Source of the DNA: Streptomyces sp. NRRL S-646
GTDB taxonomy: Bacteria; Actinomycetota; Actinomycetes; Streptomycetales; Streptomycetaceae
Assembly: GCF_000720765.1 (NCBI RefSeq)
Contig: NZ_JODC01000050.1
Span: 1 to 18,863 of the forward strand
Reading direction: 5' to 3'
Length of the DNA stretch: 18,863 bases
A model generated the notes under the pieces. That model made no database searches, was not told where the DNA came from, and saw nothing but the letters and a program-made list of their open reading frames with translations. This document shows positions 1 to 18,863 of the stretch, piece by piece. Positions within the stretch are counted from its first letter, which is position 1. The number at the start of each line of letters is the position of its first letter. Position numbers and translations under genes: made by a program.

Positions 1-1446
1 CCGTTGGATCCGGACGGCACGGTGCTGGTGACCGGTGGTACGGGTGGTCTGGGTGCGCTGGTGGCCCGGCACCTGGTGACCGAGCATGGAATCCGGCATC
101 TGCTGCTGGCGAGCCGACGCGGTCTGGAAGCTCCGGGTGCCGGTGAACTCGTCGCTGAACTCGCGGGGTTGGGTGCCGAGGTCGAGGTGGCGGCCCTGGA
201 CGTCGCGGATCGTGCGGCGCTGGCGGACATGCTCGCCGCCGTGCCCGCCGACAAGCCGTTGACGGCCGTGGTCCACACCGCGGGCATCGTCGATGACGGT
301 GTGGTCGCCTCCCTCACCCCGGACCGGCTGGCCAAGGTCATGCGCCCGAAGGCCGACGCGGTGGCACACCTGCACGAGCTGACCCGGGACGCCGACCTGT
401 CCGCGTTCGTGGTCTTCTCCTCCGTCGCCGGCACGTTCGGCAGCGCGGGGCAGGCCAACTACGCGGCTGCCAACGCCTTCCTCGACGGCTTCGCGGCCCT
501 GCGCCGGGCCGCCGGACTCCCCGCGGCGTCCCTCGCCTGGGGAGCGTGGGCGCCCGGCACGGGCATGACCGCCGAGCTGACCGAGGCGGACCTGCGACGC
601 ATGGCACGCGGCGGCATGCGGCCGCTCACCGCCGAGCAGGGCCTCGAACTCCTCGACACCGCCGGGCTCGTGTCCGCCGCGGCTCCCACGCACCGGGCGT
701 TGCTGCTGCCGGTGAACCTGGACCTCCAGGCGCTGCGGGCGCACGCCGAGGCCGTACCGCCGCTGCTGCGCGGCCTGGTGCGGGCACCGGCCCGACGGGC
801 CGCTCAGACGGCGGCCGGAGCCGGCGCGGAGCGGCAGGACCTCGGTGCCCAGTTGGCGGCGCTCGCGCCGGCCGACCGGGAGCAGTACCTCGTCGACCTG
901 GTCTGCGCCCAGGCGGCGGCCACCCTCGGCCACGCCTCGGCGGACGAGATCGAACCGGACCAGGCGTTCAAGGAGCTGGGCTTCGACTCGCTCACCGCCG
1001 TCGAACTGCGCAACCGGCTCAACGCGGCCACCAGGCTGCGGCTGCCGGCCACGCTGGTGTTCGACCATCCGACGCCGACGGTGCTGGCGGCGCAACTGCT
1101 TCAGGAGATCACCCTGCCGGAGGCGTCCGGCACGGGTGCGGGCGAGGGCCCGGGCGAAGCCGCGACAGCGGTGCCGCTCCTGGTCGAACTGGACCGGCTG
1201 GAGGCCGCGCTGGGCGCCGCCGCGGTCGGCGGGGACGACTACGCGACGATCACTTCCCGGCTGCAGCGGCTGACGGCGAAGTGGCAGGACATGGCAACGA
1301 AGGGCAGCGGTGCCGGACACGACAACGGCACCGGCTCCGGGGAACCCGGAGCGGCACTCGCCGACGTGGACGACGGGGAACTGGACTCCGTCGAGACGGC
1401 GGACGAGCTGTTCGACCTGATCGACAAAGAACTCGGGATGTCGTGA
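1..1446 (+). CDS. Type I modular PKS, C-terminal part (KR-ACP-docking), 5' partial
   Basis: The frame is open from base 1, so the start lies upstream; the TTG at 4 is only an internal codon. Counting codons from base 1, the KR Rossmann motif TGGTGGLG begins at codon 11 (31-54), VDD (the B-type LDD position) at codons 97-99, and the catalytic Tyr at codon 154 (460) within NYAAAN. An ACP follows at about 889-1104, with its phosphopantetheine Ser at 988-990 in GFDSL. A C-terminal docking segment ends at the TGA (1444-1446). The KR reduces the beta-keto group using NADPH and the ACP carries the chain. The KR is preceded by [13 protein letters not shown], like the ER-KR linker of module 2 downstream and unlike the linkers of the KR-only modules, so this module probably also has DH and ER upstream (inference). 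Gene B begins about 45 bases later. The family is certain; the identity of the product is unknown. Confidence 0.96.
1171..1443 (+). other. C-terminal docking domain of PKS A
   Basis: After the ACP comes a helix-rich segment ([15 protein letters not shown], then [12 protein letters not shown]), a Gly/Ser/Glu-rich linker, and a terminal acidic helix containing [13 protein letters not shown]. This is the classic actinobacterial C-terminal docking architecture: a dimerising helical pair followed by the docking helix. It should pair with the N-terminal coiled coil of PKS B at 1510-1602 and pass the chain on. The assignment rests on motif recognition; partner specificity is inferred from gene order. 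Confidence 0.85.
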
Positions 1447-1476
1447 TCAGCCGCGGGAAACCGTTGGCATCGGCTC

Positions 1477-1481
1477 AGGGA
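1477..1481 (+). promoter_or_regulatory. Probable ribosome binding site of PKS B
   Basis: AGGGA lies 10 bases before GTG 1492 and 7 before TTG 1489. It is only one base from the earliest in-frame GTG at 1483, which is too close, so 1483 is disfavoured. ATG 1510 (before [11 protein letters not shown]) is the other credible start but lacks a good purine-rich site at normal spacing. The choice between 1492 and 1510 affects only six residues ahead of the docking helix. Confidence 0.5.
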
Positions 1482-1491
1482 TGTGGCGTTG

Positions 1492-4400
1492 GTGGCTGAA
1501 GACGACAAGATGGACGACAAGTACGTCGAGTACCTCAAGCGGTTGACCGCGGAGCTGCGGCAGACCCGCCGGCAGCTGCGCGACGCCGAGGGACGCGACC
1601 GGGAACCGATCGCGATCGTGGCGATGAGCTGCCGCTACCCCGGCGGGGTGGACAGCCCGGAAGAGCTGTGGCGGCTCGTCGACGAGGGCGGGGACGCCAT
1701 CTCCGGGTTCCCCGCCGACCGCGGCTGGGACGTCGAGGCGGGATACGACCCCGACCCCGACAAACCCGGCACCTTCTACGCGCTCGGCGGCGGATTCCTG
1801 CACGAGGCGTCCCGGTTCGACGCGGACTTCTTCGGGATCTCGCCGCGCGAGGCCCTCGCGATGGACCCGCAGCAGCGGCTGCTGCTGGAGATCTCCTGGG
1901 AGGCGTTCGAGCGGGCCGGCATCGATCCCGGCGCGGTGCGCGGCAGCAGCACCGGCGTCTTCGTCGGCGCCGCGACCTCCGGTTACGGGGCGGGGGTGAG
2001 CGAGTTCCCCGACGGTGTGCAGGGCCTGCTCCTCGCGGGCAACGCCACCTCGGTCGCCTCCGGCCGCATCGCCTACACCCTCGGCCTGGAAGGGCCCACC
2101 GTCACCGTCGACACAGCCTGCTCCTCCTCGCTGGTCGCCCTGCACTGGGCGTGTCAGGCGCTGCGCCGCGGCGAGTGCGACATGGCGCTCGCCGGCGGCG
2201 TGGCGGTGATGGCCACACCGGCGATGTTCTACGAGTTCAGCAGGCAGCGCGGGCTGGCCGCCGACGGCCGGTGCAAGGCGTTCTCCGACGACGCCGACGG
2301 CACCGGCTGGGCGGAGGGCGCGGGCATCCTGCTGGTGGAGCGACTGTCCGACGCCCGGCGCCTCGGGCACCCGGTGCTGGCCGTGGTCCGCGGAACCGCG
2401 ATCAACTCCGACGGCGCCTCCAACGGTCTCACCGCCCCCAACGGCCCCGCCCAGCAGCGGGTCATCCGCGCCGCCCTGGCGGGCGCGGGCCTTGCCCCCG
2501 CCGACGTGGACGCCGTCGACGCGCACGGCACCGGTACCTCGCTCGGTGACCCCATCGAGGCGCAGGCCCTGCTCGCCGCCTACGGCCAGGACCGCGAACA
2601 GCCGCTGTGGCTGGGCTCGTTGAAGTCCAACATCGGGCACACGCAGTCGGCCGCGGGTGTCGGCAGCATCATCAAGATGGTCGAGGCGATGCGGCACGGA
2701 GTGCTGCCGCGCACCTTGCACGTGTCCGAGCCGTCCCGGCACGTCGACTGGTCGGCGGGCGCGGTGCGCCTGCTCACCGAGCCGGTCGAGTGGCCCGGGA
2801 CGGACCGTCCGCGCCGCGCCGCTGTGTCGTCGTTCGGCATCAGCGGCACCAACGCGCACGCCGTCATCGAGCAGGCCCCCGCGCCCGAAGCCGAACCCGC
2901 CGAGCCTGCCGCGGACTCCGCGGCCCCGGCCGCCGAGCCCCGCACCCTGCCCGTCGTGCCGTGGCCGGTGTCCGCGCGCAGCGAGGAGGGGCTGCGGGCG
3001 CAGGCCGCCCGGCTGCTGGCCCGGCTGCGCGAGCAGCCCGAGCCGCCGCGTGCACTGGACGTCGGCCACGCGCTCGCCACCACCCGGGCCGCCCTGGAGC
3101 ACCGGGCGATCGTCCTCGCCGCCGACCACGACACCGCCGTACGGGAACTGACCGCGCTCGCCGAGGGCACCCCGGGCACCGCGACCGTCCACGGCCGCAC
3201 CGTGCGCGGCGCCACCGCCTTCCTGTTCGCCGGCCAGGGCTCCCAACGGCTCGGCATGGGCCGGGAGCTGTACGAGACGTACCCGGTCTTCGCCGAGGCC
3301 TTCGACGCGGTGGACGCCGAACTGCCGTTCAGCCTGCGGGAGATCGTCTTCGGTGATGACGCGGATCGGCTGAAGCGCACCGAATACGCCCAGCCCGCGC
3401 TCTTCGCCCTCGAAGTCGCCCTCTTCCGGCTGCTGGAGGCGTGGGGCGTCACCCCGAAGTTCCTGCTGGGTCACTCCGTCGGCGAGCTGGCCGCCGCCCA
3501 TGTCGCGGGCGTGTGGTCCCTCGCGGACGCCTGCCGGCTCGTGGTGGCGCGTGGCCGGCTGATGCAGGCGCTTCCGGCGGGCGGCGCCATGGCCGCGCTC
3601 CAGGCGACCGAGGAGGAGGTGCTGCCCCTGCTGAACGACCGGGTCGGCATCGCCGCCGTCAACGGCCCCCGCGCGGTGGTGATCTCCGGCGCCGCCGACG
3701 CCGTGGAGGAGGCGGCCGCGCACTTGCGCGCCCAGGACCGCAAGGTGACGGCCCTGCGGGTCAGCCACGCCTTCCACTCCCCGCTGATGGAGCCCATGCT
3801 CCAGGAGTTCCGCGAGGTCGCCGAGAGCGTCACCTACCACACGCCCCGTCTGACGATCGTCTCCGACGTGACCGGCGACACCGCCCGCCCGGCCGACCTG
3901 TGCTCGCCCGACTACTGGGTCCGGCACGTCCGTGAACCCGTCCGCTTCGCCGACGGGATACGGCTGCTGGCGGGGCGCCGGGTGGCCCGCTTCGTCGAGC
4001 TGGGCCCCGACGGCACCCTCACCGCCCTCGCCCAGGACTGCCTGCCGGGCGACGCGGTGTCGGCCGTGCCCACCCTGCGCAAGGACCGGCCCGAGCCCGC
4101 CGCGCTGATGGCCGCGGTCGCCGGCGCGTTCGCCCACGGGGCGCCGGTCGACTGGCCGGCCGTCTTCGCGGGGACCGGCGCCCGCGCCGTGGAGCTGCCC
4201 ACGTACGCCTTCCGCCGTGAACGGTACTGGCTGGAGCCGACCCCGCCCGGCACGGCGGCCGCCGAGGAGACCGGCGGCGGGGACGCGCGGTTCTGGACGG
4301 CCGTCGAGAAGGAGGACATCACCGCCCTCGCCGACACGCTGGACGTCGACGAGGGGCTCGTCCGTCCCCTGGTACCCGCTCTGTCGTCGTGGTGGCGCGG

Positions 4401-7400
4401 ACGGCGCGAGCTCGGGCGGGTGGACGGGCTGCGCTACCGCGTCGGATGGCAGCCGCTCGACCCGGGTGCCGACACCCCGCTCACCGGCCGCTGGCTCGTC
4501 GCCGTCCCCTCCGGCACGGCCGACGACGCCCGGGTCCGTACCGTGAGCGACGCGCTCGCGGCACGCGGCGCCGAACCCGTGCCGTGGGAGTACGCCCCCG
4601 ACGAGGAGCGGGAAGCGCTGGCCGCCCGGCTGGCCGGCCTCGGCGCCCTCGCGGGCATCCTGGCCCTGCCGTCCGGCATCGACGGGGAACTGTCCCCGGC
4701 GGACTTCCTGTTCCGCACGGTACGGCTCGTGCAGGCCCTCGGCGACGCCCAGCTGACCGCCCCGCTGTGGCTGGCCACCCAAGGCGCGGTGGCCACCGCA
4801 CGCTCCGACGCCGCCCCCGAACCGTCCCAGGCCGCCCTGTGGGGCCTGGGACGAGTGGCCGCACTGGAGTTGTCCGACCGGTGGGGCGGCCTCGTCGACC
4901 TGCCGCGGACCCTGGACCGGCGGGCCGCGGGACGGCTCACCGCGGTGCTGGCCCGGCCCGGCGACGAGGACCAGCTCGCCGTGCGCGCCTCCGGCGTCTT
5001 CGTACGACGTCTGTCGCGCGCCGAGGAGCAGCCCGCCCCGCAGACCGGCGCGAGCGGCTGGCAGCCCCGCGGCACGGTCCTGATCACCGGGGGCACCGGC
5101 GCGCTGGGCGCCCGGGTCGCCCGCTGGGCCGCCGAGCAGGGCGCGGAGCACCTCGTCCTGACCGGCCGCCGCGGCCCCGACGCCCCCGGCGCCGCCGAAC
5201 TGACGGCCCACCTCACCGCGCTCGGCGCCCGCGTCACGATCGAGGCGTGCGACGTCGCCGACCGCGCCGCCGTCGAGCGGCTGCTCGGCCGCCACACCGT
5301 CGACGCCGTCGTCCACGCGGCGGGCGTCACCGACACCCTGCCCCTGCCCGGCCTCGACACCGACCGCTTCCGCTCGGTCCTCGCCGCCAAGGCGCACGGC
5401 GCCGCCCACCTCGACGCCGTACTGCGCGACCAGGGCGACCGCCCGCTCGACGCGTTCGTGCTGTTCTCCTCCATCGCCGGCGTGTGGGGCAGCGGAGGCC
5501 AGACCGCCTACGCCGCCGCCAACGCCTACCTCGACGGCCTGGCCGAACAACGGCGCGCCCGCGGCGCCACCGCCACCTCCGTCGCCTGGGGACCCTGGGC
5601 CGAGGGCGGCATGGCCGCCGAGGACGGAGCCGAGGAATACCTGCGCCGACGCGGCCTCGCCGCCCTCGACCCCGACACCGCGCTGGCCGCGCTGCGCCGC
5701 ATCCTCCAGCAGGACGGCACCGGGCAGGTCGTCGCCGACGTCGACTGGACCCGGTTCACCCCCGGCTTCACCAGCACCCGCCCCAGCCCCCTGCTCACCG
5801 GCCTGCCCGAGGCGCGGGAAGCGCTGCGCACCGGGCAGAGCGGCGCGGAAGACGACGCGGCGGGCACGGCACTGAAGCAGCGCCTCACGGGCCGCCCGGC
5901 CGCCGAACGCACCCGCGCACTCCTGGAGTTGATCCGCACCCACGCCGCCGCGGTCCTCGGCCACGCCGACGCCCGGCTGCTGGAGACCCGGCGCGCCTTC
6001 CGCGACTCGGGCTTCGACTCCCTCACCGCCGTCGAACTGCGCAACCGCCTCACCACCGAGACCGGCCTCGCGCTGCCCGCCACGCTGGTCTTCGACCACC
6101 CCACGCCCGTCGACCTCGCCGCCTTCGTCCACGGCGAGATGTTCGGCGAGCCCGAGCGCGGCACCGCGGACACCGCGTCCGGCGCGGGCCGCCGGGACCG
6201 CTCGGCCGACGACCCGATCGTCATCGTCGGCATGGGCTGCCGCCTGCCCGGCGACGTGACCGGCCCCGACGAGCTGTGGGACCTGGTCGCCGCCGCACGA
6301 GACGCCGTCGCCGAGTTCCCCGCCGACCGCGGCTGGGACCTCGACGCCCTCTACCACCCCGAACCCGGCCGCCCCGGCACCAGCTACACCCGGCACGGCG
6401 GATTCCTCACCGGCGTCGGCGACTTCGACCCCGCCTTCTTCGGCATCTCGCCGCGCGAAGCCGTCGCCATGGACCCGCAGCAGCGGCTGCTGCTGGAGAC
6501 CTCCTGGGAGGCGCTGGAACGCGCCGCCATCGCCCCCGGTGGCCTGCGCGGCAGCCGTACCGGCGTGTTCATGGGCTCGAACGGCCAGGACTATCCCGCG
6601 CTGCTGCTCAGCACACCCGACGCCGGCGACGGCTACCTCGGCACCGGCAACGCGGCCGCTGTGGTCTCCGGCCGCATCGCCTACGTCCTCGGCCTAGAAG
6701 GACCCACCCTCACCGTCGACACCGCCTGCTCCTCGTCCCTGGTCGCCCTCCACCTTGCGGTGCAGGCGCTCCGGGCGGGCGAGTGCGACCTCGCCCTGGC
6801 CGGCGGCGTCACCGTCATGTCGACTCCCGGCGCCTTCCTGGAGTTCAGCCGCCAGCGCGGGCTCGCGGCGGACGGCCGGTGCAAGGCGTTCTCCGACGAG
6901 GCCGACGGCACCGGCTGGGCCGAGGGCGTGGGTGTGCTCGTGGTGGAGAGGCTCTCCGACGCGCGCCGTCATGGCCATCCGGTGCTGGCGGTGGTGGCCG
7001 GTTCCGCGGTCAACCAGGACGGCGCCAGCAACGGCCTGACCGCGCCGAACGGTCCCGCCCAGCAGCGGGTGATCCGCGCCGCGCTGTCGGATGCCGGACT
7101 CGCCCCGGCCGACGTGGACGCGGTGGAGGCGCACGGCACCGGTACGACGCTGGGCGACCCGATCGAGGCCCAGGCGCTGCTCGCCACGTACGGCCAGGAC
7201 CGCGAACGGCCCCTGTGGCTCGGCTCGTTGAAGTCCAACATCGGCCACACCCAGGCCGCGGCCGGTGTCGCCGGCATCATCAAGATGGTGCAGGCCATGC
7301 GGCACGGCCTGCTGCCGTCCACCCTGCACGCCGATGTCCCCAGCACCCACGTGGACTGGTCGGCGGGCGCCGTGGAACTGCTCACCGAGAGCACGGAATG

Positions 7401-10400
7401 GCCCAGCGCGGACCGTCCGCGCCGCGCGGGAATCTCGGCATTCGGCGTGTCCGGTACCAACGCGCACGTCATCGTCGAACAGGCGCAGGAGGCGGAGCAG
7501 GCGCAGGGCACCGAGCCCACGGCCCTGCCGGCCGCCGACACCGGGATCGGCGGCCCCCTGCCCTGGGTGATCTCCGGATCCACGGAGGACGCCCTGCGCG
7601 AGCAGGCCGAACGGCTCCTGGCCCACGCCGACGCCAGGCTCGATCTCGCCACCGTGGACCTCGGCCTCTCGCTGGCCACCACCCGCACGGCGTTCGACCA
7701 CCGTGCCGTCGTGCTGGGCGCCGACCGGGAGGAGCTGCTGTCCGTCCTCTCGTCCCTGGTCATGGACGAGCCCGCCCCCGGCGTTGTCACCGGGCGCGCA
7801 CAGGCCGAAGGCCGCACGGCGTTCCTGTTCGCCGGTCAGGGCTCGCAACGCCTCGGCATGGGCCGCGAGTTGTACGACACCTACCCGGTGTTCGCCGACG
7901 CCTTCGACGGCGCCTGCGCGCATCTGGACGCGGAACTGCCGCGCCCGCTGCGGGAGGTGGTGTTCGGTGACGACGCGGAGCGGCTGAACCGGACCGAGTA
8001 CGCCCAGCCCGCCCTGTTCGCCCTGGAAGTGGCGCTGTTCCGGCTGCTGGAGTCGTGGGGTGTGCGTCCGGATGTGCTGGCAGGGCACTCGATCGGTGAG
8101 ATCGCGGCGGCGCATGTGGCCGGTGTGTGGTCGCTGGCGGACGCCTGCCGTCTGGTGGTGGCGCGGGGCCGGTTGATGCAGGCCCTCCCGTCCGGCGGTG
8201 CGATGGTCGCGCTGCAGGCCACCGAGGAGGAGGTGCTGCCGCTGCTCGGCGACCGTGTGGGCATCGCCGCCGTCAACGGCCCCCGGGCCGTGGTTGTCGC
8301 GGGCGCCGCCGACGCCGTCGAGGAGATCGCGGCACACTTCCGTGCCCAGGACCGGAAGGTCACGGCCCTGCGGGTCAGCCATGCCTTCCACTCGCCGCTG
8401 ATGGAGCCGATGCTGGCCGAGTTCCGCACGGTGGCCGAGGGACTGTCGTACGAGCAGCCGCGGCTGCCCCTCGTCTCCACCGTGACCGGGCAGACCTCCA
8501 CCGCCGAGGAACTGTGCTCCCCGGACCACTGGGTCCGCCACGTCCGCCAGGCGGTCCGCTTCTCCGACGCCGTACATGCCCTGGAGGCGGAGGGCGTCAC
8601 CCGGTTCCTGGAATTGGGACCTGACGGCACGCTCACCGCGCTGGCCCACGCCTCGCTCGCCGACGGCGAACCGGTGGCGGTCCCGGCCCTGCGCCCCGAC
8701 CGCCCCGAGCCTGCGACGCTGCTCACGGCGACCGCGAACCTCTTCGCCCACGGCGCCGAGGTCACCTGGTCCGCGTTCTACCCCGCGGCGCGCGCCGTCG
8801 AGCTGCCCACCTACGCCTTCCAGCACGGCCGTTTCTGGCCACGTGTGACAGGCGCCCACCTCGGCGACCTGCGCTCGGCCGGTCTGTCCGCCGCCGGTCA
8901 CCCGCTGCTCGGCGCCGCCGTCACCCTCGCGGACAGCGGGGCCGCCGTCTTCACCGGGCGGCTCTCCGCCCAACTCCAGCCATGGCTGGCGGAACACGTC
9001 GTCTCCGGTTCCGTCCTGCTGCCCGGCACCGCCTTCCTGGAGCTCGCCCTGCACGCGGCGGACCGTGTCGGCTGCGGTCAGGTCGAGGAACTCACCCTGC
9101 ACACCCCCCTGGTGCTGCCCGACCGCGGAGCCGTCCAGCTCCAGGTCACCGTCGGCGCCCCGGACCCCTCCGGGCGCCGCGAGATCGGCGTGTACTCCCG
9201 CCCCGCGGCCGGCTCCGACACGGACGACCCCGACGCCGAGCCGTGGATCCAGCACGCGAGCGGCACCCTGCTGCCCGAGGCCGCCGCGCCGGCCACGGAA
9301 GCGGACGCACGACCGCCCGCCGACGCCGTCGAGGTCCCCACGGACACCCTCTACGAGCGGCTGGCGGACACCGGCCTGTCCTACGGGCCGCTGTTCCGCG
9401 GACTGACCTCCGTCCGGCAGCACGGCGACGACCTGTTCGCCGAGGCGGTCCTCCCCGACGAGTCCGCCCCGGACGCCCGCCGCTACGGCGTCCACCCGGC
9501 CCTGCTGGACTCGGTGCTGCACGCCCTCGGCGTGGCCCCGACGACCGCCGACGGCGGCGACGCGTCCGCCCCGGGGCTGCCGTTCTCGTGGGCGGGCGTC
9601 ACCCTCCACGCGACCGGCGCGTCCCGCCTCCACGCCCGCTTGCGCGTCACCGGCTCCGGTTCGGTCACTGTCGACCTCGCCGACCCGTCCGGCGCGCCCG
9701 TAGCCACCGTGGAATCCCTCACGCTGCGCGCGCTCACCGCACCGCCCGCCGACACGACGGCAACCGGTCACACCGCACTGCTGCACCGCGTCGACTGGAC
9801 ACCTCTCCCGCTCGACGCGCCCGCCGACGACATGCGGAACTCGACCGCCTCGGCCCTCACGGCGTCTCTGCCGATGTCCCTGCCGACGTCTCTCCCGACG
9901 ACCGAAGTCACCGGGGGAGAGGACGCGCTGATACGCGTGGAACTCCCGGCCGGCGACCCCGCGGAGGCAGCGCACACAGCCACGGCGAACGTTCTGGAGC
10001 TGGTGCGTGCCTGGCTGGCGGAGGAGCGGTTCGAGGGTGCCCGTCTGGTGGTGATCACCGAAGGGGCCGTGGCGCTCGATGAGAGGGCCTCGGATCCGGC
10101 TCTGGCGGCGGTGTGGGGTCTGGTGCGGGCGGCTCGGGCGGAGAACCCGGGGCGGTTCGCGCTGGTCGATATGGACGGTACGGACGAGTCCTGGGCGGTC
10201 CTCCCGGCCGCGCTGTCCTCCGGCGAGGCCGAAGTCGCCGTACGCGCAGGTGTCGCCTTCACCCCGCGTCTGGGCCGGGCCACCTCGGGACGTGAACTCG
10301 CGCTTCCCGCAGGGGAGTCGGCCTGGCGCCTGGACATCGTGGAGAAGGGCACGCTGGAAGGGCTCGCGCTGCGCCCGGTCCCGGAGGCGGAGGCCGAGCT

Positions 10401-11910
10401 GACGCACGGTCATGTCCGCATTGCGGTGCGGGCCGCGGGCGTGAACTTCCGCGACGTTCTCAACGCGCTCGGCATGTACCCCGGTGACGCGCGGGACTTC
10501 GGTCTGGAGGGTGCGGGTGTGGTGACCGGGGTCGGTCCCGGGGTGACCGGGCTCGCCGTCGGCGACCGCGTGATGGGGTTGTTCTCCGGTTCCTTCGGAC
10601 CGGTGGCGGTGGCGGATGCGCGGACGGTGGCCCGGGTTCCTGCGGGGTGGTCGTTCGCGCAGGCGGCGTCGGTGCCGATCGTGTTCCTCACGGCGTACTA
10701 CGCCCTCACCGACCTCGGTGGCCTTGAGGCCGGGGAGTCGGTGCTGGTGCATGCGGCGGCCGGTGGTGTGGGCATGGCCGCCACGCAGCTGGCACGGCAT
10801 CTCGGCGCCGAGGTGTTCGGTACGGCGAGTGCCGGCAAATGGGACACCCTGCGCGAGCTCGGTCTGGACGAGGCGCACATCGCCTCCTCCCGGGACACCG
10901 ACTTCGAGGCGGCGTTCCTCACGGCGACCGGCGGTCGTGGCATGGACGTCGTACTGGACTCGCTGGCCGGTGAGTTCGTCGATGCCTCACTGAGGTTGCT
11001 GCCACGTGGTGGCCGCTTCCTGGAGATGGGCAAGACCGATGTCCGGGACGCGGACGCGGTGGCTGCCGAGCACGCGGGCGTGACGTATCGGGCGTTCGAT
11101 CTGTGGGATGCCGGTCCGGAGCGGATCGGGGAGATGCTGGCCGACCTGGTCGCCCTGTTCGACGAGGGCGTGCTGGAACCCCTTCCGGTCACCTGCTGGG
11201 ACGTACGGCAGGCACCGGAGGCATTCCGGTATCTCTCGCAGGCCCGCCATGTCGGCAAGGTCGTCCTGACCGTCCCGGCACCGCTGCACCCGGACGGGAC
11301 CGTGCTGGTGACCGGCGGTACCGGTGGTCTGGGTGCGCTGGTGGCCCGGCACCTGGTCACCGAGCACGGTATCCGGCATCTGCTGCTGGCCAGCCGCCGC
11401 GGCCTGGAGGCCCCGGGCGCTGGTGAACTCGTCGCTGATTTGGCTGAGTTGGGTGCTCAGGTCGAGGTGGCGGCGGTTGATGTCGCCGACCGCGACCAGG
11501 TGGCCGCCATGCTGGACACCGTTTCCGCCGGCCACCCGCTGACCGCCGTGGTCCACACGGCCGGCGTCCTGGACGACGGTGTGGTCGCCTCCCTCACCCC
11601 GGACCGGCTGGTGAGGGTCATGCGCCCGAAGGCCGACGCGACGGTCCATCTGCACGAGCTGACGCGGGACGCCGACCTGTCCGCGTTCGTGGTCTTCTCC
11701 TCGGTCGCGGGGACGTTCGGCGGCGCGGGCCAGGCCAACTACGCGGCCGCCAACGCCTTCCTGGACGCCTTCGCCGTCACCCGCCGTTCCTCCGGCCTGC
11801 CCGCGACCGCCCTCGCCTGGGGCCCCTGGCGTCGCGGCCCTGCCGGCCATGCTCCGAGGCCTCGCCGCGGCGCCCGCGCGGCGCACGGCGTCCGTGGCGG
11901 ACGGCGCTGA
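1492..11910 (+). CDS. Type I modular PKS B, 5' part (module 1 and most of module 2), frameshifted
   Basis: As read this encodes 3472 residues. In order: N-terminal docking coiled coil (7-37), KS (38-461), AT (575-864), KR (980-1442), ACP (1477-1546), KS (1574-1997), AT (2109-2403), DH (2469-2748), KR structural half (2762-2940), ER (2952-3263) and KR catalytic half (from 3270). It extends a polyketide by two malonyl units; module 1 leaves a hydroxyl and module 2 would fully reduce. All catalytic motifs up to about 11829 are intact. After LAWGPW the frame continues for 27 Arg/Gly/Pro-rich codons unlike any PKS domain and stops at 11908-11910, while true PKS sequence continues in frame 2. This ORF therefore lacks the KR C-terminus, ACP, module 3 and docking tail that belong to it. 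The start is chosen from the AGGGA at 1477; GTG 1483 and ATG 1510 are alternatives. Confidence 0.93.
1510..1602 (+). other. N-terminal docking coiled coil of PKS B
   Basis: The segment [20 protein letters not shown] followed by QLRDAE is the heptad-patterned helix that precedes the first KS in actinobacterial PKS subunits (compare [14 protein letters not shown] here with [14 protein letters not shown] in PKS C). It should form a parallel coiled coil in the dimer and receive the docking helix of PKS A. It runs directly into [11 protein letters not shown], the start of the KS. Confidence 0.88.
1603..6129 (+). other. PKS module 1: KS-AT(malonyl)-KR(A-type)-ACP
   Basis: KS 1603-2874 has the active Cys in DTACSSS (2119) and His in DAHGTGT (2524) and NIGHT (2638). 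AT 3214-4083 has GHSVG (Ser 3475) and HAFH (3766-3777), the malonyl-CoA signature. A linker with FWTAV and [11 protein letters not shown] at about 4285-4428 matches the dimerisation element of modules without DH. KR 4429-5817 has [11 protein letters not shown] in place of LDD (5329-5337), the A-type Trp in GVWGS (5485) and catalytic Tyr 5509 and Asn 5521; Gln rather than His precedes the Tyr, suggesting A1. ACP 5920-6129 has Ser 6019 in GFDSL. Predicted outcome: one malonate-derived unit with an L-configured beta-hydroxyl. Two oddities: Asp replaces Glu before the first KS His (2518), and AT is four residues shorter than module 2 near 3301-3325. Confidence 0.93.
9865..9900 (+). repeat. Three tandem 12-base units ([12 protein letters not shown]) in module 2 KR structural half
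   Basis: Three consecutive 12-base units (TCTCTGCCGATG, TCCCTGCCGACG, TCTCTCCCGACG) differ at one to three bases and encode [12 protein letters not shown]. They lie between the start of the KR structural half ([10 protein letters not shown]) and its Rossmann-like strands. The length multiple keeps the frame. Probably a surface loop expanded by replication slippage. Confidence 0.75.
11281..11820 (+). repeat. KR catalytic block duplicated from/with 1-540
   Basis: Bases 1-540 and 11281-11820 align with no gaps at a constant offset of 11280. Line-by-line counting gives about 84 differences in 540 (about 84% identity). The differences are uneven: 301-360 versus 11581-11640 differ at only 3 of 60 positions, while 181-240 versus 11461-11520 differ at about 17. 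Both copies begin at the ER-KR linker [12 protein letters not shown]. This fits a shared module ancestry with patchy homogenisation. Confidence 0.85.
11827..11849 (+). other. Deletion/frameshift junction in module 2 KR
   Basis: Frame 1 reads LAWGPW up to 11829 and then loses PKS similarity. Frame 2 from 11828 reads [19 protein letters not shown], matching the gene A segment [16 protein letters not shown]. Alignment to gene A has an offset of 11280 before the junction and 11086 after it (ATG 11849 against CTG 763), so this copy is 194 bases shorter. 194 leaves remainder 2 on division by 3, which exactly explains the move from frame 1 to frame 2. About 65 residues of the KR C-terminus (the substrate-lid region) are gone. 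Biological deletion and sequencing or assembly error both fit. Confidence 0.88.
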
Positions 11911-14900
11911 GGCGGGGGAGAGCTTCCAGACCCGGCTCACGGCGCTTCCGCGCGCCGAGCGGGAGACGGCGGTCCTGGATCTCGTACGCACGCAGACGGC
12001 GCTGGTGCTGGGGCACGCAGGAGCGGACTCCGTGGAGGCCGGCCGGGACTTCCGCGGCCTCGGAATCGACTCGCTCACCGCCGTCGAACTGCGCAACCGT
12101 CTGAACGCGGCGACCGGACTGCGGTTGCCCGCGACCCTGGTGTTCGACTATCCGTCGCCGCAGGCGCTCGCCCGCCACATCGGCGCCGAACTCCTCGACG
12201 CCGAGCCCCCGGCCGAAGGCGCTGCCGCGACCGGTACCGCGCCCGGGAGCACGGTCCCGGCCGTCCGCATCGCCGACCAGGCCGACGACGACGCACGCAT
12301 CGCGATCGTGGGGCTCGGCTGCCGATTCCCCGGAGGTGTGCGCGGCCCGGAGGAGTTCTGGCGGCTGCTGGCCGACGGGGTGGACGCGATCGGTGCGCCG
12401 CCCGCGGACCGAGGCTGGCAGGCGGACGGGGTCGAGGGCGGATTCCTGTACGACGCCGCAGAGTTCGACGCGGACTTCTTCGGGATCTCGCCGCGCGAGG
12501 CGCTCGCGATGGACCCGCAGCAGCGGCTGCTGCTGGAGATCTCCTGGGAGGCGCTGGAGCGGGCCGCGATCGACCCGCGCGGGCTGCACGGTTCCCGTAC
12601 CGGTGTGTTCGTCGGCACGAACTACCAGGGCTACGGGTCGGCCGCGCACGCGGTCCCCGAGGACGCGCAGGGACAGCTGCTCACCGGGCACGCCGCGAGC
12701 GTGGCCTCCGGCCGGGTCGCCTATGTGCTGGGCCTGGAGGGCCCGGCGGTCACCGTGGACACGGCTTGCTCGTCCTCCCTCGTGGCCCTGCACTGGGCGG
12801 CGCAGTCGCTGCGTTCCGGCGAGTGCGATCTGGCGCTCGCGGGCGGTGTGACGGTGATGGCGACGCCGGGCGCGTTCGCCGAGTTCGACCGGCAGGGCGG
12901 TCTCGCCGGTGACAACCGCTGCAAGGCCTTCTCGGACGACGCCGACGGCACCGGCTGGGGCGAGGGCGCAGGCGTCCTGCTGCTGGAGCGGCTCTCCGAC
13001 GCCCGCCGCAACGGACACCCGGTGCTCGCCGTGGTCCGCGGCAGTGCCGTCAACTCGGACGGCGCCAGCAACGGTCTGACCGCGCCCAACGGACCCTCGC
13101 AGCAGCGGGTCATCCGGGCCGCGCTGGCGGCGGGCGGGCTCACCCCGGCCGACGTGGACGCGGTGGAGGCGCACGGCACCGGCACCAAGCTCGGGGATCC
13201 GATCGAGGCGCAGGCCCTGCTCGCCACCTATGGCCAGGACCGCGAACAGCCCCTGTGGCTGGGGTCGGTGAAGTCCAACATCGGGCACACCCAGGCCGCC
13301 GCCGGCGTCGCCGGTGTCATCAAGACGGTGCTGGCGATGCGGCACGGGACGCTGCCGCGCACCCTGCACGTCACACGACCGACGACGCACGTCGACTGGA
13401 CGGCGGGCCGGATCCAGCTGCTGGCCGAGCCGGAGCCCTGGGCGCGCACGGGACGGCCCCGGCGGGCGGCGGTGTCGTCGTTCGGCATCAGCGGCACCAA
13501 CGCCCATGTCGTCCTGGAGGAAGGCACCGAGGAGCAGGCCCCCGCGGAGCCGCAGGCCACGGACGGCCCGGAGCGCGGGCCGGTCGCCTGGCCGCTGAGC
13601 GGACGGTCGGCCGTCGCCCTGCGCGGCCAGGCCGAACGGCTCCGCGCCCGGTTGACCGCCCGCCCGGAGTCGTCCCCCGCCGACGTGGCCCACTCCCTGG
13701 CCACCGGCCGCGCGGTGTTCGAGCACCGGGCCGTGGTGGTCGCCGAGGACCGGGAGGAACTCCTGGCCGGGCTGTCCGCAATCGGCCGCGGAGAGGACGC
13801 CGCCGGCGTGGTGAGCGGCCGCACCGGGCCGTGGGGCCGTACGGCATTCCTGTTCAGCGGGCAGGGCTCACAGCGGCCCGGTATGGGCCGGGAACTCCTC
13901 GACCGGTTCCCGGTGTACGCCGATGCCTTCCACCGTGTCTGCGACGCGTTCGCCCCGCACCTCGACGTGCCGCTGGCCGACGTCGTACTGGCCGAGGAGG
14001 GCACGGAACCGGCCCGGCTGCTGGACCGCACCGCCTACACCCAGCCCGCGCTCTTCGCCGTGCACGTGGCGCTCTACGAACTGGTGCGCTCGTGGGGGGG
14101 CACGCCGGACGCGCTGATGGGGCACTCCATCGGCGAACTGTCCGCCGCGCACGTCTCCGGAGTGCTGTCGCTGCCGGACGCGTGCGCGCTGGTGGCCGCC
14201 CGCGGCCGGCTGATGGAGGCGCTGCCCGAGGGCGGCGCGATGACCGCCGTACAGGCGTCCGAGGACGAGGTGCTGCCCCTGCTGGACGAAAGGGTCTCCA
14301 TCGCCGCCGTCAACGGGCCGGCAGCGGTGGTCGTCTCCGGTGACGAGGACGCCGTGTCGGACATTGACGGGCATTTCGCCGCGCTGGGCCGAAAGACTAG
14401 GCGTTTGCGGGTCAGCCATGCGTTTCACTCGGCGCATATGGACGCGATGCTTGCGGAGTTCGAGGAGGTCGCGCGCGGCGTGAAGTACGACGCGCCCGCG
14501 ATCCCGATCGTCTCCAACGTGACGGGGAACCGGGCCACCGAGGCCGAACTGACCTCGCCCGACCACTGGGTGCGGCATGTGCGGCAGACCGTGCGCTTCG
14601 CCGACGGCGTACGCCGCCTCGGCGAGGACGGTGTCGGTACGTTCGTGGAACTCGGGCCGGACGGCTCACTGACCGCGATGACCCTCGACACCCTTCAGGA
14701 GTCCGAGCCCGCTGTCGCCGGCATCCCGGTGCTGCGCCGGGGCCGGCCCGAGCCGGTCGCCGCGCTGCTGGCCGCAGGGGCACTGCACGTACGCGGCCTC
14801 GCCGCCGCGCCGACCGGGCTGACCGGCCCGGCCCGTACGGTGGGACTGCCGACCTACGCCTTCCAGCGCAGCCGCTACTGGCTGGAGGCGGCCAAGCCCG

Positions 14901-17107
14901 CCGACGCCGAGCGCCCGAGCGACGGCGACCTGGTCGACGACGAGTTCTGGGCCGCCGTCGAGCGCGGCGACCTGGGCGAGCTCACCGAGCGCCCCGACCT
15001 CGGCGACGACACCCCCCTCAGCGAACTGCTGCCCGCCCTGTCGTCCTGGCGGCGCCGCCGCCGCGAGAGTTCCGCGCTCGACTCCTGCTCCTACAGCGTG
15101 CTCTGGCGGCCGGTACCGGACGGCCCGTCATCCGTGCTGTCGGGCACCTGGCTGCTGGCGCTGCCCGCCTCCCGGACCGACGATCCCTGGACGAACACGC
15201 TCACCGAGGGCCTGACCGCGCACGGTGCGCAGATCGTGCCGCTCACCGTGGACTGCGCCCTCACCGACCGGGCCGCGCTCGGCGAACAGCTGCGCAAGCT
15301 CCCCGAACGGGACACCCTGCAGGGCGTGCTGTCGCTGCTCGCCCTCGACCAGGAGCCCGCCGTGGCCGGCCTGGACGGGGCCGCCGCAGCCGGCAGCGCC
15401 GCCACCCCGGCCGGTCTGGGCGCGCAGCTCGCCCTGACGCAGGCACTCGGCGACCTGGAGATCGGCGCCCCGCTGTGGTGCGCCACCGTCGGAGCGGTCG
15501 CCGCCACCGAACGCGAGAGCGTGACCGCACCGGAACAGGCCGCCGTCTGGGGCCTCGGTCGGGTCGCCGCGCTCGAACAGCCGCAGCGCTGGGGCGGTCT
15601 CGTCGACCTCCCCGCCGACCTCGACAGCCGCAGCGCCGAACGGCTCGCCGGACTGCTCTCCGGCACCACGGGCGAGGACCAGAGCGCCGTACGGTCCGCC
15701 GGAGTCTTCGCCCGCCGCCTGGTGCACGCCCGGCCGTCCACGACCGAGGCACCCGAGTGGAACTGCACGGACCAGACCGTGCTGATCACCGGCGGCACCG
15801 GATCGCTCGGCGCCCGGGTCGCGCGCCGCCTCGCCGAGCGCGGTGCCCGGCATCTGGTCCTGGTCGGCCGCCGGGGCCCCGACGCCGAAGGCGCCGAAGC
15901 ACTGCGCGCCGAACTCGCCGCCGTGGGCGCCGAAGTGACCCTCGCCGCCTGCGACACCGCCGACGCCGACGCCCTGGCCGCGCTCCTCGCCGAGCACCCG
16001 GTGGACGCCGTGGTGCACGCGGCCGGAGTCCTGGACGACGGGCTGCTCCAGGCGTTGACGCCGGAGCGTCTGGAGGCGGTGCTGCGGCCGAAGCTGGCCG
16101 CCGCCCGTAACCTCGACAGGCTCACCCGCGACCGCGAACTCTCGGCGTTCGTCCTGTTCTCCTCCTTCGCCGGCACGGTCGGCTCGGCGGGCCAGGGCAA
16201 CTACGCCGCCGCCAACGCCTACCTCGACGCGCTCGCCGCCCGGCGCCGCGCCGAGGGACTGCCCGCCACCTCCGTCGCCTGGGGCCCCTGGGCCGGCGGC
16301 GGAATGGCCGGCGGCGACGACGCGGAAGCACGGCTGCGGGGCGGCGGTGTCGTCCCGCTCGACCCGGACGCGGCGCTCGCCGCCCTCGACCGGGCAGTGG
16401 CCCGCGCCGACGCCCAGCTGACCGTCGCCGAGCTGACCTGGGACCGCTTTGTGCCCGGGTTCACCGCCGTGCGGCCCGCCCCGCTGCTCGCCGAACTGCC
16501 TGAAGCCCAGGCCCTGGTGCGCCAGGCGCGGGAGCGGGACGGCGGTGCGCAGGCGGAGGGCGGCGCGCTGGGCACCCGGCTCGCCGGACTCGCCGAGGCC
16601 GAGCAGGAACGGCTGCTGACCCAGCTGGTCCGCGACCACGTCGCCACCGTGCTGGGCCACGGCTCCGCCGACGCGGTCGACGCGGACCGCGCCTTCAACG
16701 AACTCGGCTTCGACTCGCTGATGGCGGTGGAACTGCGCAACAGGCTCGGTGTGGCGGCCGGCCTCCAACTGCCCGCCACGCTCCTGTTCGACCAGCCCAC
16801 ACCACGGGTCCTCGCCCGCCATCTGCGGTCGCTGACCGTGACCGAGGGCGGCGGCGCCCCCGCGCTGGACGCCCTGGACCAGTTGGAGGCCGCTCTGACC
16901 GGGCTCGCCGAGGACGACGCGCAGCGCGGCCGGATCGCCTCCCGCCTGCTGGCGCTCGCCACCCGCTGGAACGGCCAGGCCCAAGCGCCGGCCGAACGGA
17001 CGGACGACAGCGACGGCGGCGGCGACAGCGACCTTCAGGACCGGATCGAATCCGCCGGCGCCGAGGAGATCTTCGCCCTCATCGACAACGACCTGGGCCT
17101 CTCATGA
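11849..17107 (+). CDS. Type I modular PKS B, 3' part (module 2 ACP, module 3, docking), frame 2
   Basis: This is the continuation of PKS B after the frameshift, 1752 residues from ATG 11849; PKS-like sequence in this frame is recognisable from 11828. The ATG is an internal Met (AMLRGL) without a ribosome binding site, so it is probably not a natural start. Order by residue: ACP (42-115, Ser75), KS (149-557, Cys307, His442, His480), AT (665-964, Ser760, HAFH 857-860), dimerisation element (about 1031-1081), KR (1082-1554, TGGTG at 1314, LDD at 1395, Tyr1452), ACP (1589-1662, Ser1623) and C-terminal docking (1672-1752). It would receive the module 2 chain, add one malonate unit and leave a D-type beta-hydroxyl. 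If the frameshift is real this part is untranslated or made only by rare internal initiation. Its TGA overlaps the ATG at 17104. Confidence 0.9.
12293..16834 (+). other. PKS module 3: KS-AT(malonyl)-KR(B-type)-ACP
   Basis: KS 12293-13519 has Cys 12767 in DTACSSS and His 13172 and 13286. Between PADRGW and GGFL it has 6 residues where the other three KSs have 20, and it reads [11 protein letters not shown] where they read [12 protein letters not shown] 13841-14740 has GHSIG (Ser 14126) and HAFH (14417), malonyl type, but is clearly more divergent than ATs 1 and 2. A dimerisation element ([10 protein letters not shown] ... [11 protein letters not shown]) lies at 14939-15091. KR 15092-16510 has TGGTGSLG (15788), LDD (16031) and Tyr 16202 with no A-type Trp, so B-type. 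ACP 16613-16834 has Ser 16715 in GFDSL. There is no DH or ER, so the beta-hydroxyl remains. Confidence 0.92.
16862..17104 (+). other. C-terminal docking domain of PKS B
   Basis: The helix [14 protein letters not shown] and the helix [13 protein letters not shown] are followed by an Asp/Gly-rich linker and a terminal helix with [13 protein letters not shown]. The arrangement is the same as the docking tail of PKS A. Expected partner: the N-terminal coiled coil of PKS C at 17178-17276. It is encoded only in frame 2, downstream of the frameshift, so the truncated PKS B reading would lack it. Confidence 0.85.
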
Positions 17108-17181
17108 CCGGCACGACGACCACGACGACCACGGCCACCGCCATGGCCGACACGACCTTCCAGGTGGGGGAGTACGCGTGA
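17104..17181 (+). CDS. 25-residue Thr-rich mini-ORF bridging PKS B and PKS C
   Basis: ATG 17104 overlaps the TGA of PKS B (ATGA) and the TGA of this frame (17179-17181) overlaps the GTG of PKS C (GTGA). The peptide is Thr-rich (residues 4-10 are all Thr), with a second Met at 14 and an end of TFQVGEYA. Two copies of the 9-base unit CACGACGAC occur at 17112-17129. It resembles no family I know. It may be only an intergenic spacer that happens to be open, but the overlap at both ends would let a ribosome finishing PKS B re-initiate and be delivered to the PKS C start. A functional peptide is unlikely; a translational-coupling role is speculative. Confidence 0.3.
17166..17172 (+). promoter_or_regulatory. 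Ribosome binding site of PKS C
   Basis: GGGGGAG lies 5 bases before GTG 17178. No ATG, GTG or TTG occurs in the same frame between 17103 and 17178, so this GTG is the first possible start. The peptide [18 protein letters not shown] has the length expected for a docking helix leading into the KS. Confidence 0.75.
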
Positions 17182-17276
17182 ACGAGCAGGAAAAGCTCCT
17201 CAGCTACCTCAAGAAGGTCACCGGCGATCTCCACGAGACCCGCAAGCGGCTGCGCGAGGCGGAATCAGCGTCCCGG
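17178..17276 (+). other. N-terminal docking coiled coil of PKS C
   Basis: [20 protein letters not shown] is the same heptad-type helix as at the start of PKS B and precedes [11 protein letters not shown] of the KS. It should recognise the docking tail of PKS B (16862-17104) and receive the chain made by module 3. Confidence 0.87.
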
Positions 17277-18863
17277 GAACCGGTCGCCATCGTCGCGATG
17301 AGCTGCCGTTTCCCCGGCGGCGCCGACTCGCCCGAGGAACTGTGGCGGCTGCTGGGCTCCGGCGGCGACGCCGTGACCGAGTGGCCCGCCGACCGCGGCT
17401 GGAACCTCGCCGATCACTACGACCCCGAACCCGGCCGCCCCGGAAAGACATACAGCACCTCCGGCGGCGCCCTCGCCGGAGCCGGAGACTTCGACGCCTC
17501 CTTCTTCGGGATCTCGCCACGCGAGGCGATGGCGATGGACCCGCAGCAGCGGCTGCTCCTGGAGATCTCCTGGGAGGCGTTCGAGCGGGCCGGCATCGAC
17601 CCCACGACCCTGCGCGGCTCCCGGACAGGTGTCTTCGCGGGGACCAACGGCCAGGACTACACAGGTCTGCTGCTGGCCTCGCAGGAGAGCCTGGAAGGAC
17701 ATGTCGGCACCGGAAACGCCGCCAGCGTGGTCTCCGGACGCATCTCCTACACCCTCGGCCTGGAGGGCCCTGCGGTCACCGTCGACACCGCCTGCTCCTC
17801 CTCTCTGGTCGGCCTGCACCTGGCCGTACGGGCGCTGCGGGCCAGGGAGTGCGACCTGGCGCTCGCCGGCGGCGTCACCGTGCTGTCGACGCCCGGCCTC
17901 TTCCTGGAGTTCAGCAGACAGCGGGGCCTCGCCCCCGACGGCCGCTGCAAGGCGTTCGCCGAGGCCGCCGACGGCACCGGCTGGGCCGAAGGCGCCGGAA
18001 TGCTGCTGGTGGAACGGCTCGCCGACGCCCGCCGGCTCGGGCACCCCGTCCTCGCCGTGGTCCGCGGCAGCGCCGTCAACCAGGACGGCGCCTCCAACGG
18101 CCTGACCGCCCCCAACGGACCCTCCCAGCAGCGCGTCATCTGGCAGGCCCTTGCCGACGCCCAGCTGTCCACCGCGGACGTCGACGCCGTGGAGGCGCAC
18201 GGCACCGGTACCACGCTCGGCGACCCGATCGAGGCGCAGGCCCTGCTCGCGACCTATGGGCAGGACCGCGAACGGCCGCTGTGGCTCGGCTCCGTCAAGT
18301 CCAACATCGGGCACACCCAGGCCGCCGCCGGCGTCGCCGGCGTCATGAAGATGGTGCTGGCCATGCAGCACGGCCTGCTGCCCCGCACGCTCCACGTGGA
18401 CCGGCCCAGCACGCACGTCGACTGGACGGCGGGCCGTGTCGAACTGCTCACCGAGTCCCGCCCCTGGCCCGCCGACGACCGGCCGCGCGTGGCGGGCGTC
18501 TCCTCCTTCGGCGTCAGCGGCACCAATGCCCACGTCATCCTCGAACAACCCGCCCCCGAACCGGCCGCCGCGGACGAGCCCGCCGAACGGCCCGCCCCGC
18601 CGCCGGGCAGCACACTGCCGTACGTCGTCTCCGCGCGCAGCGCCACGGCACTGCGCGCCCAGGCCGCCGCCCTGCACGCCCGGCTGCGCGTCGACGACGC
18701 GCTCGACCCGCACGACGTGGCCTGGTCGCTGGCCGCCACCCGCTCCACGTTCGAACACCGCGCGGTGCTGCTGGCCGACGACGGCACGGAGTTGCTGCGG
18801 GGTCTGGAGTCGCTGGTGGCGGGTGTTCCGGCGGCTGGGCTGGTGCAGGGTGTGGCCGATGTG
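17178..18863 (+). CDS. Type I modular PKS C, N-terminal part (docking-KS-linker), 3' partial
   Basis: The frame is open from GTG 17178 to the last base (562 codons), so the gene runs off the window. Residues 1-33 are a docking coiled coil. Residues 34-457 are a KS with PADRGW, Cys206 in DTACSSS (17793), His341 in EAHGTGT (18198) and His379 in NIGHT (18312); all catalytic residues are present, so it is an active extender-type KS. From 18549 a Pro/Ala/Glu-rich linker leads into the KS-AT linker fold (LPYVVSARS ... [11 protein letters not shown]). The window ends just before the expected AT, so extender specificity and reduction level are unknown. The start sits 71 bases after the stop of PKS B and overlaps the mini-ORF stop. 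From about 18795 the codons switch to G/T-ending forms. Confidence 0.95.

What the first reader, a model, noticed from the sequence alone, without database searches (positions are those of the whole stretch)
11821..11910. Module 2 ketoreductase carries a 194-base deletion that shifts the frame of a 15.6 kb PKS gene
The KR copy aligns to 1-540 at a constant offset of 11280, then re-aligns at an offset of 11086 from 11849 onward. That is a net loss of 194 bases (remainder 2 modulo 3), matching the observed frame 1 to frame 2 change. The KR loses its C-terminal lid, and as read the protein ends before the module 2 ACP, module 3 and docking domain. If real, the assembly line is severed and the cluster would be silent or make a shunt product. 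If not, the true sequence contains the missing bases and module 2 is fully reducing.
Basis: partly seen in the sequence, partly recalled or inferred. Interest (0 to 1): 0.75.

Follow-up and report, generated by a model that had tools for sequence, protein, structure and literature searches.

The report
Assembly gap mimicking a broken PKS
A giant polyketide-making gene of a Streptomyces looks cut in two, but the missing stretch is most likely a flaw in how short sequencing reads were pieced together, so this is an ordinary artefact and not a broken gene.

Summary
The PKS frame opened at 1483 is lost after 11829 and continues in another frame from 11849 to 17107. Measured against orthologues the loss is 182 bases, not 194; the 194 came from a paralogous KR that is 12 bases longer. 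Both leave remainder 2 modulo 3. Six of six aligned orthologues (75-95% DNA identity beside the join) hold the stretch. The two closest, Streptomyces sp. HD and S. alanosinicus, read as one open frame of 5265 and 5269 codons.

The severed-gene reading is probably wrong. The window is a whole contig (C50) of a 163-contig draft. Contig ends there share exact overlaps, most often 99 bases, the mark of k-mer assembly. The same assembly's PKS contigs have lost 13 such blocks (71-452 bases), 9 of them not multiples of three. HD against S. alanosinicus shows 1 in 88.8 kb, and it is in frame. As a set the lost blocks are more repeated between modules than chance, though the C50 block itself is not. 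I judge it an assembly artefact (0.88), with module 2 an intact fully reducing module. Without reads, a real recent deletion is not excluded.

The parts
1..1446 (+). 3' end of the upstream PKS gene: KR, ACP, C-terminal tail that looks like a docking domain (recalled, not tested)
   Evidence: Pfam KR and PP-binding hits; translation
1483..11829 (+). 5' part of the PKS gene: KS-AT-KR-ACP, then KS-AT-DH-ER-KR core of module 2
   Evidence: ORF; Pfam; 97.4% DNA identity with HD over 1-11438; no stop in HD or S. alanosinicus
11829..11830 (+). Join at which about 182 bases present in the orthologues are absent; no exact microhomology with HD
11830..11910 (+). Out-of-frame tail of ORF1: 26 residues and the stop at 11908-11910
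11849..17107 (+). 3' part of the same PKS gene in frame 2: ACP of module 2, KS-AT-KR-ACP of module 3, C-terminal tail; the ATG at 11849 is internal to the orthologous frame
17178..18863 (+). Start of the next PKS gene (KS and what follows); the last 99 bases equal the end of contig C47
550..646 (+). Paralogous stretch in the upstream KR, 94% identical over 97 bases to the start of the segment missing at 11829 (HD's copy of it)

Best explanation
The frame break is an artefact of a short-read draft assembly. About 182 bases of the module 2 KR were not placed in this contig and the flanks were joined directly, as happened at 12 other places in PKS contigs of the same assembly. In the organism the gene most likely runs in one frame and encodes three modules, with module 2 (KS-AT-DH-ER-KR-ACP) fully reducing. 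Shown: the join, the orthologues that hold the stretch, the other lost blocks, and their enrichment, as a set, in intermodular repeats. Inferred: that the lost bases exist in the strain, and that reads were short. Not shown: the assembler step that dropped the C50 block.
For: Six of six aligned orthologues keep the stretch. For the four other genomes searched, the flank coordinates imply 176-182 extra bases (read from the table, not aligned). HD and S. alanosinicus have one open frame across both flanks (5265 and 5269 codons). Own PKS contigs against HD show 12 simple lost blocks: 11 listed and one. A 13th (C62, 204 b) shows against S. alanosinicus. 9 of the 13 are not multiples of three, about the two thirds expected if reading frame does not matter. 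Seven of the 13 are seen against at least two relatives. The 12 seen against HD lie in open HD frames of 1244-5277 codons, stop to stop. Control: HD against S. alanosinicus has 1 such block in 88.8 kb, in frame. The lost blocks as a set are more similar to other PKS modules than random segments: mean rank 0.15 (loose controls), 0.21 against segments of PKS contigs only, 0.25 against those with a clear paralogue (about 0.0002 and 0.001 for 12 uniform ranks). Contig ends share exact overlaps, most often of 99 bases. Both halves differ from the relatives mainly at third codon positions, with no stop in either relative. Non-PKS control: among 79 HD ORFs with a match (106 kb, hits of at least 75% identity and 25 residues), no frame change came with a loss of 20 or more codons.
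Against: No reads or coverage were available. The lost 182 bases were not found elsewhere in the held genome (40 of 344 first-look candidates scored), but 13 of 13 fetched contigs under 3 kb read N throughout, so small contigs cannot be checked. The join has no exact overlap with HD's flanks, so collapse of an exact 99-base repeat does not explain it. The C50 block itself is not unusually repeated (21 of 60 controls as high, 37 of 100 and 37 of 78). Six of the 13 lost blocks rest on one relative only. Both closest relatives are drafts. The non-PKS control has 3 frame changes (losses of 0 and 14 codons and one overlap).
Confidence: 0.88

Rival explanations
1. A real, recent 182-base deletion in this strain breaks the PKS gene. 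The first polypeptide ends after the KR core, so module 3 is not joined to module 2 and the cluster is silent or releases a truncated product.
For: The letters say so. The C50 block is not unusually repeated, so repeat trouble is not specifically shown there. A join without microhomology suits end joining, which Streptomyces can carry out (recalled).
Against: Twelve further blocks of similar size are lost from the PKS contigs of the same assembly, 8 of those 12 out of frame. There is no other decay in the window: over 18.6 kb aligned to HD the other indels are 3 and 12 bases, and changes lie mostly at third codon positions in both halves.
Confidence: 0.09
2. The whole cluster is decaying in this strain by many real deletions of 70-450 bases.
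For: 13 lost blocks in the PKS contigs.
Against: Between the blocks the DNA stays 92.6-98.7% identical to HD. C40, C47, C52 and the C7 end have no such block against HD. The lost blocks as a set are enriched in intermodular repeats, which suits an assembler better than a mutational process.
Confidence: 0.02
3. A naturally split PKS: ORF1 and ORF2 are two working subunits that pair.
For: ATG at 11849 in frame with ORF2.
Against: ORF1 ends in 26 out-of-frame residues right after the KR core. HD and S. alanosinicus read as one frame here, and the four other aligned relatives hold the stretch (their frames were not translated).
Confidence: 0.01

Closest known systems
Collapsed or lost repeats in short-read assemblies of Streptomyces PKS clusters (for example strain Mg1, PMC3731836, whole text read)
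   Same: Draft assembly of a high-GC genome; PKS genes broken over many contigs; sequence missing
   Different: There the authors saw collapsed repeats and coverage gaps after long-read reassembly; here no reassembly exists, and the joins are direct, without N
Orthologous PKS gene of Streptomyces sp. HD (NZ_JAQMYP010000086.1) and S. alanosinicus JCM 4714 (NZ_BMVG01000070.1)
   Same: Collinear over the window, 96.6-98.1% DNA identity on either side of the join
   Different: One unbroken frame of 5265 and 5269 codons; the 182 bases are present

Membership tests
Modular type I PKS with a fully reducing module 2 | KS, AT, DH, ER, KR and ACP in module 2 | tested here: met
   Pfam KS, AT, PKS_DH, ADH_zinc_N and KR in P0001; two PP-binding stretches in P0002, module 2 and module 3. 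The KR lacks its C-terminal stretch in the window but not in 6 of 6 aligned orthologues. Catalytic activity not tested.
Real frameshift pseudogene | Break confirmed by reads or by a second isolate | not testable with these tools
   No reads; one genome per species held.
Real frameshift pseudogene | Further decay or relaxed constraint behind the break | tested here: not met
   Third-position bias kept on both sides; only in-frame indels of 3 and 12 bases against HD elsewhere. A very recent break would also look like this.
Short-read assembly artefact | k-mer-sized exact overlaps at contig ends | tested here: met
   99-base exact overlaps at many of the ends listed, including C50 with C47; some are shorter (28-96).
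Short-read assembly artefact | Several like lesions in the same assembly, indifferent to reading frame | tested here: met
   13 blocks, 9 out of frame.
Short-read assembly artefact | Lost blocks lie in repeated DNA | tested here: inconclusive
   Met for the set of 12 (mean rank 0.15-0.25), not for the C50 block alone (37 of 100 and 37 of 78 controls as high).
Short-read assembly artefact | Missing bases present in reads or on another contig of the same genome | tested here: inconclusive
   Not found in the held contigs; contigs under 3 kb read N (13 of 13 fetched); reads unavailable.

The most novel reading that the evidence does not exclude
The 13 lost blocks are real: a giant PKS cluster, acquired recently by horizontal transfer, is being dismantled in this strain by many small deletions, several in module-repeated DNA, leaving a strain that makes a shunt product or nothing.
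Probability: 0.02. Interest if true: 0.45.

Novelty: not a real feature. Interest (0 to 1): 0.1.

Why it matters
It warns against reading gene loss, domain loss or shunt chemistry from this contig, and shows that several PKS contigs of this genome have lost blocks that would change predicted chemistry. It suggests a cheap test for other drafts: are the lost blocks of one assembly indifferent to reading frame and richer in intermodular repeats than chance?

Tried and rejected
Repeat collapse in the strict sense (an exact repeat of 99 bases or more shared by the two KRs) was not shown. The longest exact repeat inside C50 is 51 bases and the join has no exact overlap with HD's flanks. A first repeat control drew random segments from whole HD contigs that also hold non-PKS DNA, which flattered the result. 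I repeated it on six HD contigs taken as PKS (not annotated by me) and on segments with a clear paralogue: the enrichment of the set holds but is weaker, and the C50 block is ordinary.

High GC as the cause was tested for five lost blocks and not supported in general. None is extreme in GC; the C50 segment is more foldable than most (6 of 60 random segments as low or lower).

A nucleotide control on non-PKS DNA (91.8 kb at 85% identity) gave 10 breaks with a net loss in this genome of 59-464 bases, 9 of them with unaligned bases on this genome's side too. It is too diverged to tell intergenic change from lost blocks, so I used the protein-frame control. That gave 3 frame changes among 79 ORFs, two of them at one place on opposite strands, with no loss of 20 or more codons; it includes ORFs that may be spurious.

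Natural product identity was sought in two literature searches (2 papers listed, neither read; 0 papers). I name no product. Literature on assembly: 865 papers hold at least 4 of the 6 terms, 15 listed, one read in passages, PMC5484115; 8 hold at least 5 of the 6 terms, 7 listed, one read whole, PMC3731836.

Dropped before the count of lost blocks: a break of 350 bases in C40 against S. alanosinicus, because HD and this genome agree there and S. alanosinicus differs from both (HD against S. alanosinicus: 315, in frame). Small indels in C40, C47, C57 and C7 that are not multiples of three were not assigned to genes or intergenic DNA. Own contigs C45, C46, C48, C49, C51, C54 and the two C21 stretches were in the comparison but gave no row against the HD or S. 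alanosinicus stretches held. For C50 one search prints 186 and 188 because the aligner ran past the join; 182 is. Loci L119, L120 and L121 were fetched and not analysed.

Full report
What is there. The window is the whole of contig C50 of a 10.7 Mb, 163-contig draft. It holds the end of one modular PKS gene (1-1446), a PKS gene read as two ORFs (1483-11910 in frame 1 and 11849-17107 in frame 2), and the start of a third (17178 onward). Pfam gives KS-AT-KR-ACP and KS-AT-DH-ER-KR on the first ORF, and ACP, KS-AT-KR-ACP on the second.

Size and place. Against orthologues the loss is 182 bases, between 11829 and 11830; the paralogue carries 12 more bases in the alignment. Both have remainder 2. 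The KR core is kept (Pfam KR positions 1-179 of 180); the lost part lies between that core and the ACP linker.

Relatives. One scan of a collection of one genome per species, with the upstream gene end as query, gave 77 loci (the best of 154 relatives). Ten of their genomes were searched with the region around the join. In six, both flanks were aligned, and all six hold the stretch: Streptomyces sp. HD, S. alanosinicus, S. griseoruber, DSM 15324, S. bungoensis and OK074 (identities beside the join 75-95%). For the other four, the coordinates imply 176-182 extra bases, not aligned by me. HD and S. alanosinicus have a single open frame across the place (5265 and 5269 codons). Over 18.6 kb aligned to HD the only other indels are 3 and 12 bases. 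In 392 genomes of the genus, 4 besides the window's own had a match at 1e-120 or better to the region. I did not use them to judge the join; two of them (G135, G024) give the same contig coordinates as the S. griseoruber and OK074 genomes.

Why it is probably not a broken gene. Among the contig ends compared, exact overlaps are most often 99 bases, C50 with C47 among them; a few are shorter (visible part). That is the trace of k-mer assembly, and I infer short reads. I then compared the other PKS contigs of this genome with HD and S. alanosinicus. Besides C50 (182), blocks are missing in C53 (72), C55 (140 and 144), C56 (452), C57 (252), C58 (71), C59 (266), C60 (107 and 262), C61 (220 and 173) and C62 (204, against S. 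alanosinicus only). That makes 13 blocks, with 141 kb aligned to HD and 88 kb to S. alanosinicus. Nine are not multiples of three, close to the two thirds expected if reading frame does not matter. I inspected 5 of the 13 joins letter by letter: they have little or no shared sequence. Seven of the 13 are backed by at least two relatives: C50, C53, both in C55, C56 and both in C61. The 12 seen against HD lie inside long HD frames. HD against S. alanosinicus, as control, has one such block in 88.8 kb, and it is in frame. C40, C47, C52 and the C7 end have no such block against HD. In a non-PKS control of 79 HD ORFs, 3 frame changes were seen and none came with a loss of 20 or more codons.

Cause. 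The lost blocks as a set are DNA more similar to other PKS modules than random segments. The mean rank is 0.15 with loose controls, 0.21 against 100 segments each from six HD contigs taken as PKS, and 0.25 against those of them with a clear paralogue. The blocks in C56, C60 (262) and C61 (173) are extreme (0 to 3 of 100 controls as high), while the C50 block is ordinary (37 of 100). Its first 97 bases in HD's copy are 94% identical to window 550-646, but no exact 99-base repeat is shown. GC content does not explain the losses in general (five blocks tested). I infer that bases which the assembler could not place were dropped and the flanks joined; for C50 the exact reason is not shown. The missing bases were not found in the held contigs, where contigs under 3 kb read N.

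Selection. Differences from HD fall at codon positions 1, 2, 3 as 45, 36, 179 before the break and 18, 15, 62 after it. So the part behind the break is constrained like the part before it, as expected of an intact gene or a very recent break.

Literature. A review (PMC5484115, passages) states that repeats in biosynthetic clusters can lead to misassemblies that skew interpretation.

Verdict. The deletion is in the deposited sequence but is most likely not in the organism (0.88). The biology is that of an ordinary three-module PKS gene with a fully reducing second module.

Noticed in passing
window 1-18863 and own contigs C40, C47, C52, C7 end: These PKS-bearing contigs are 96.7-98.4% identical to Streptomyces sp. 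HD, while the non-PKS regions compared are only about 85-89% identical, which suggests recent horizontal transfer of the cluster between species.
   Followed up: partly
window 1-500 and 9750-11750: The ER/KR parts of the two PKS genes are in places more diverged from HD and S. alanosinicus (88-98%) than most of the rest (about 96-100%), as if the repeated KR/ER copies had exchanged sequence.
   Followed up: no
own contigs C53, C55, C56, C57, C58, C59, C60, C61, C62: Twelve further lost blocks of 71-452 bases in PKS genes of the same assembly; domain predictions from these contigs are unsafe.
   Followed up: yes
window 18765-18863: The last 99 bases equal the end of contig C47, so C47 probably continues the downstream PKS gene.
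   Followed up: partly
window 17123: S. alanosinicus has 48 more bases in the short intergenic stretch between the two PKS genes.
   Followed up: no
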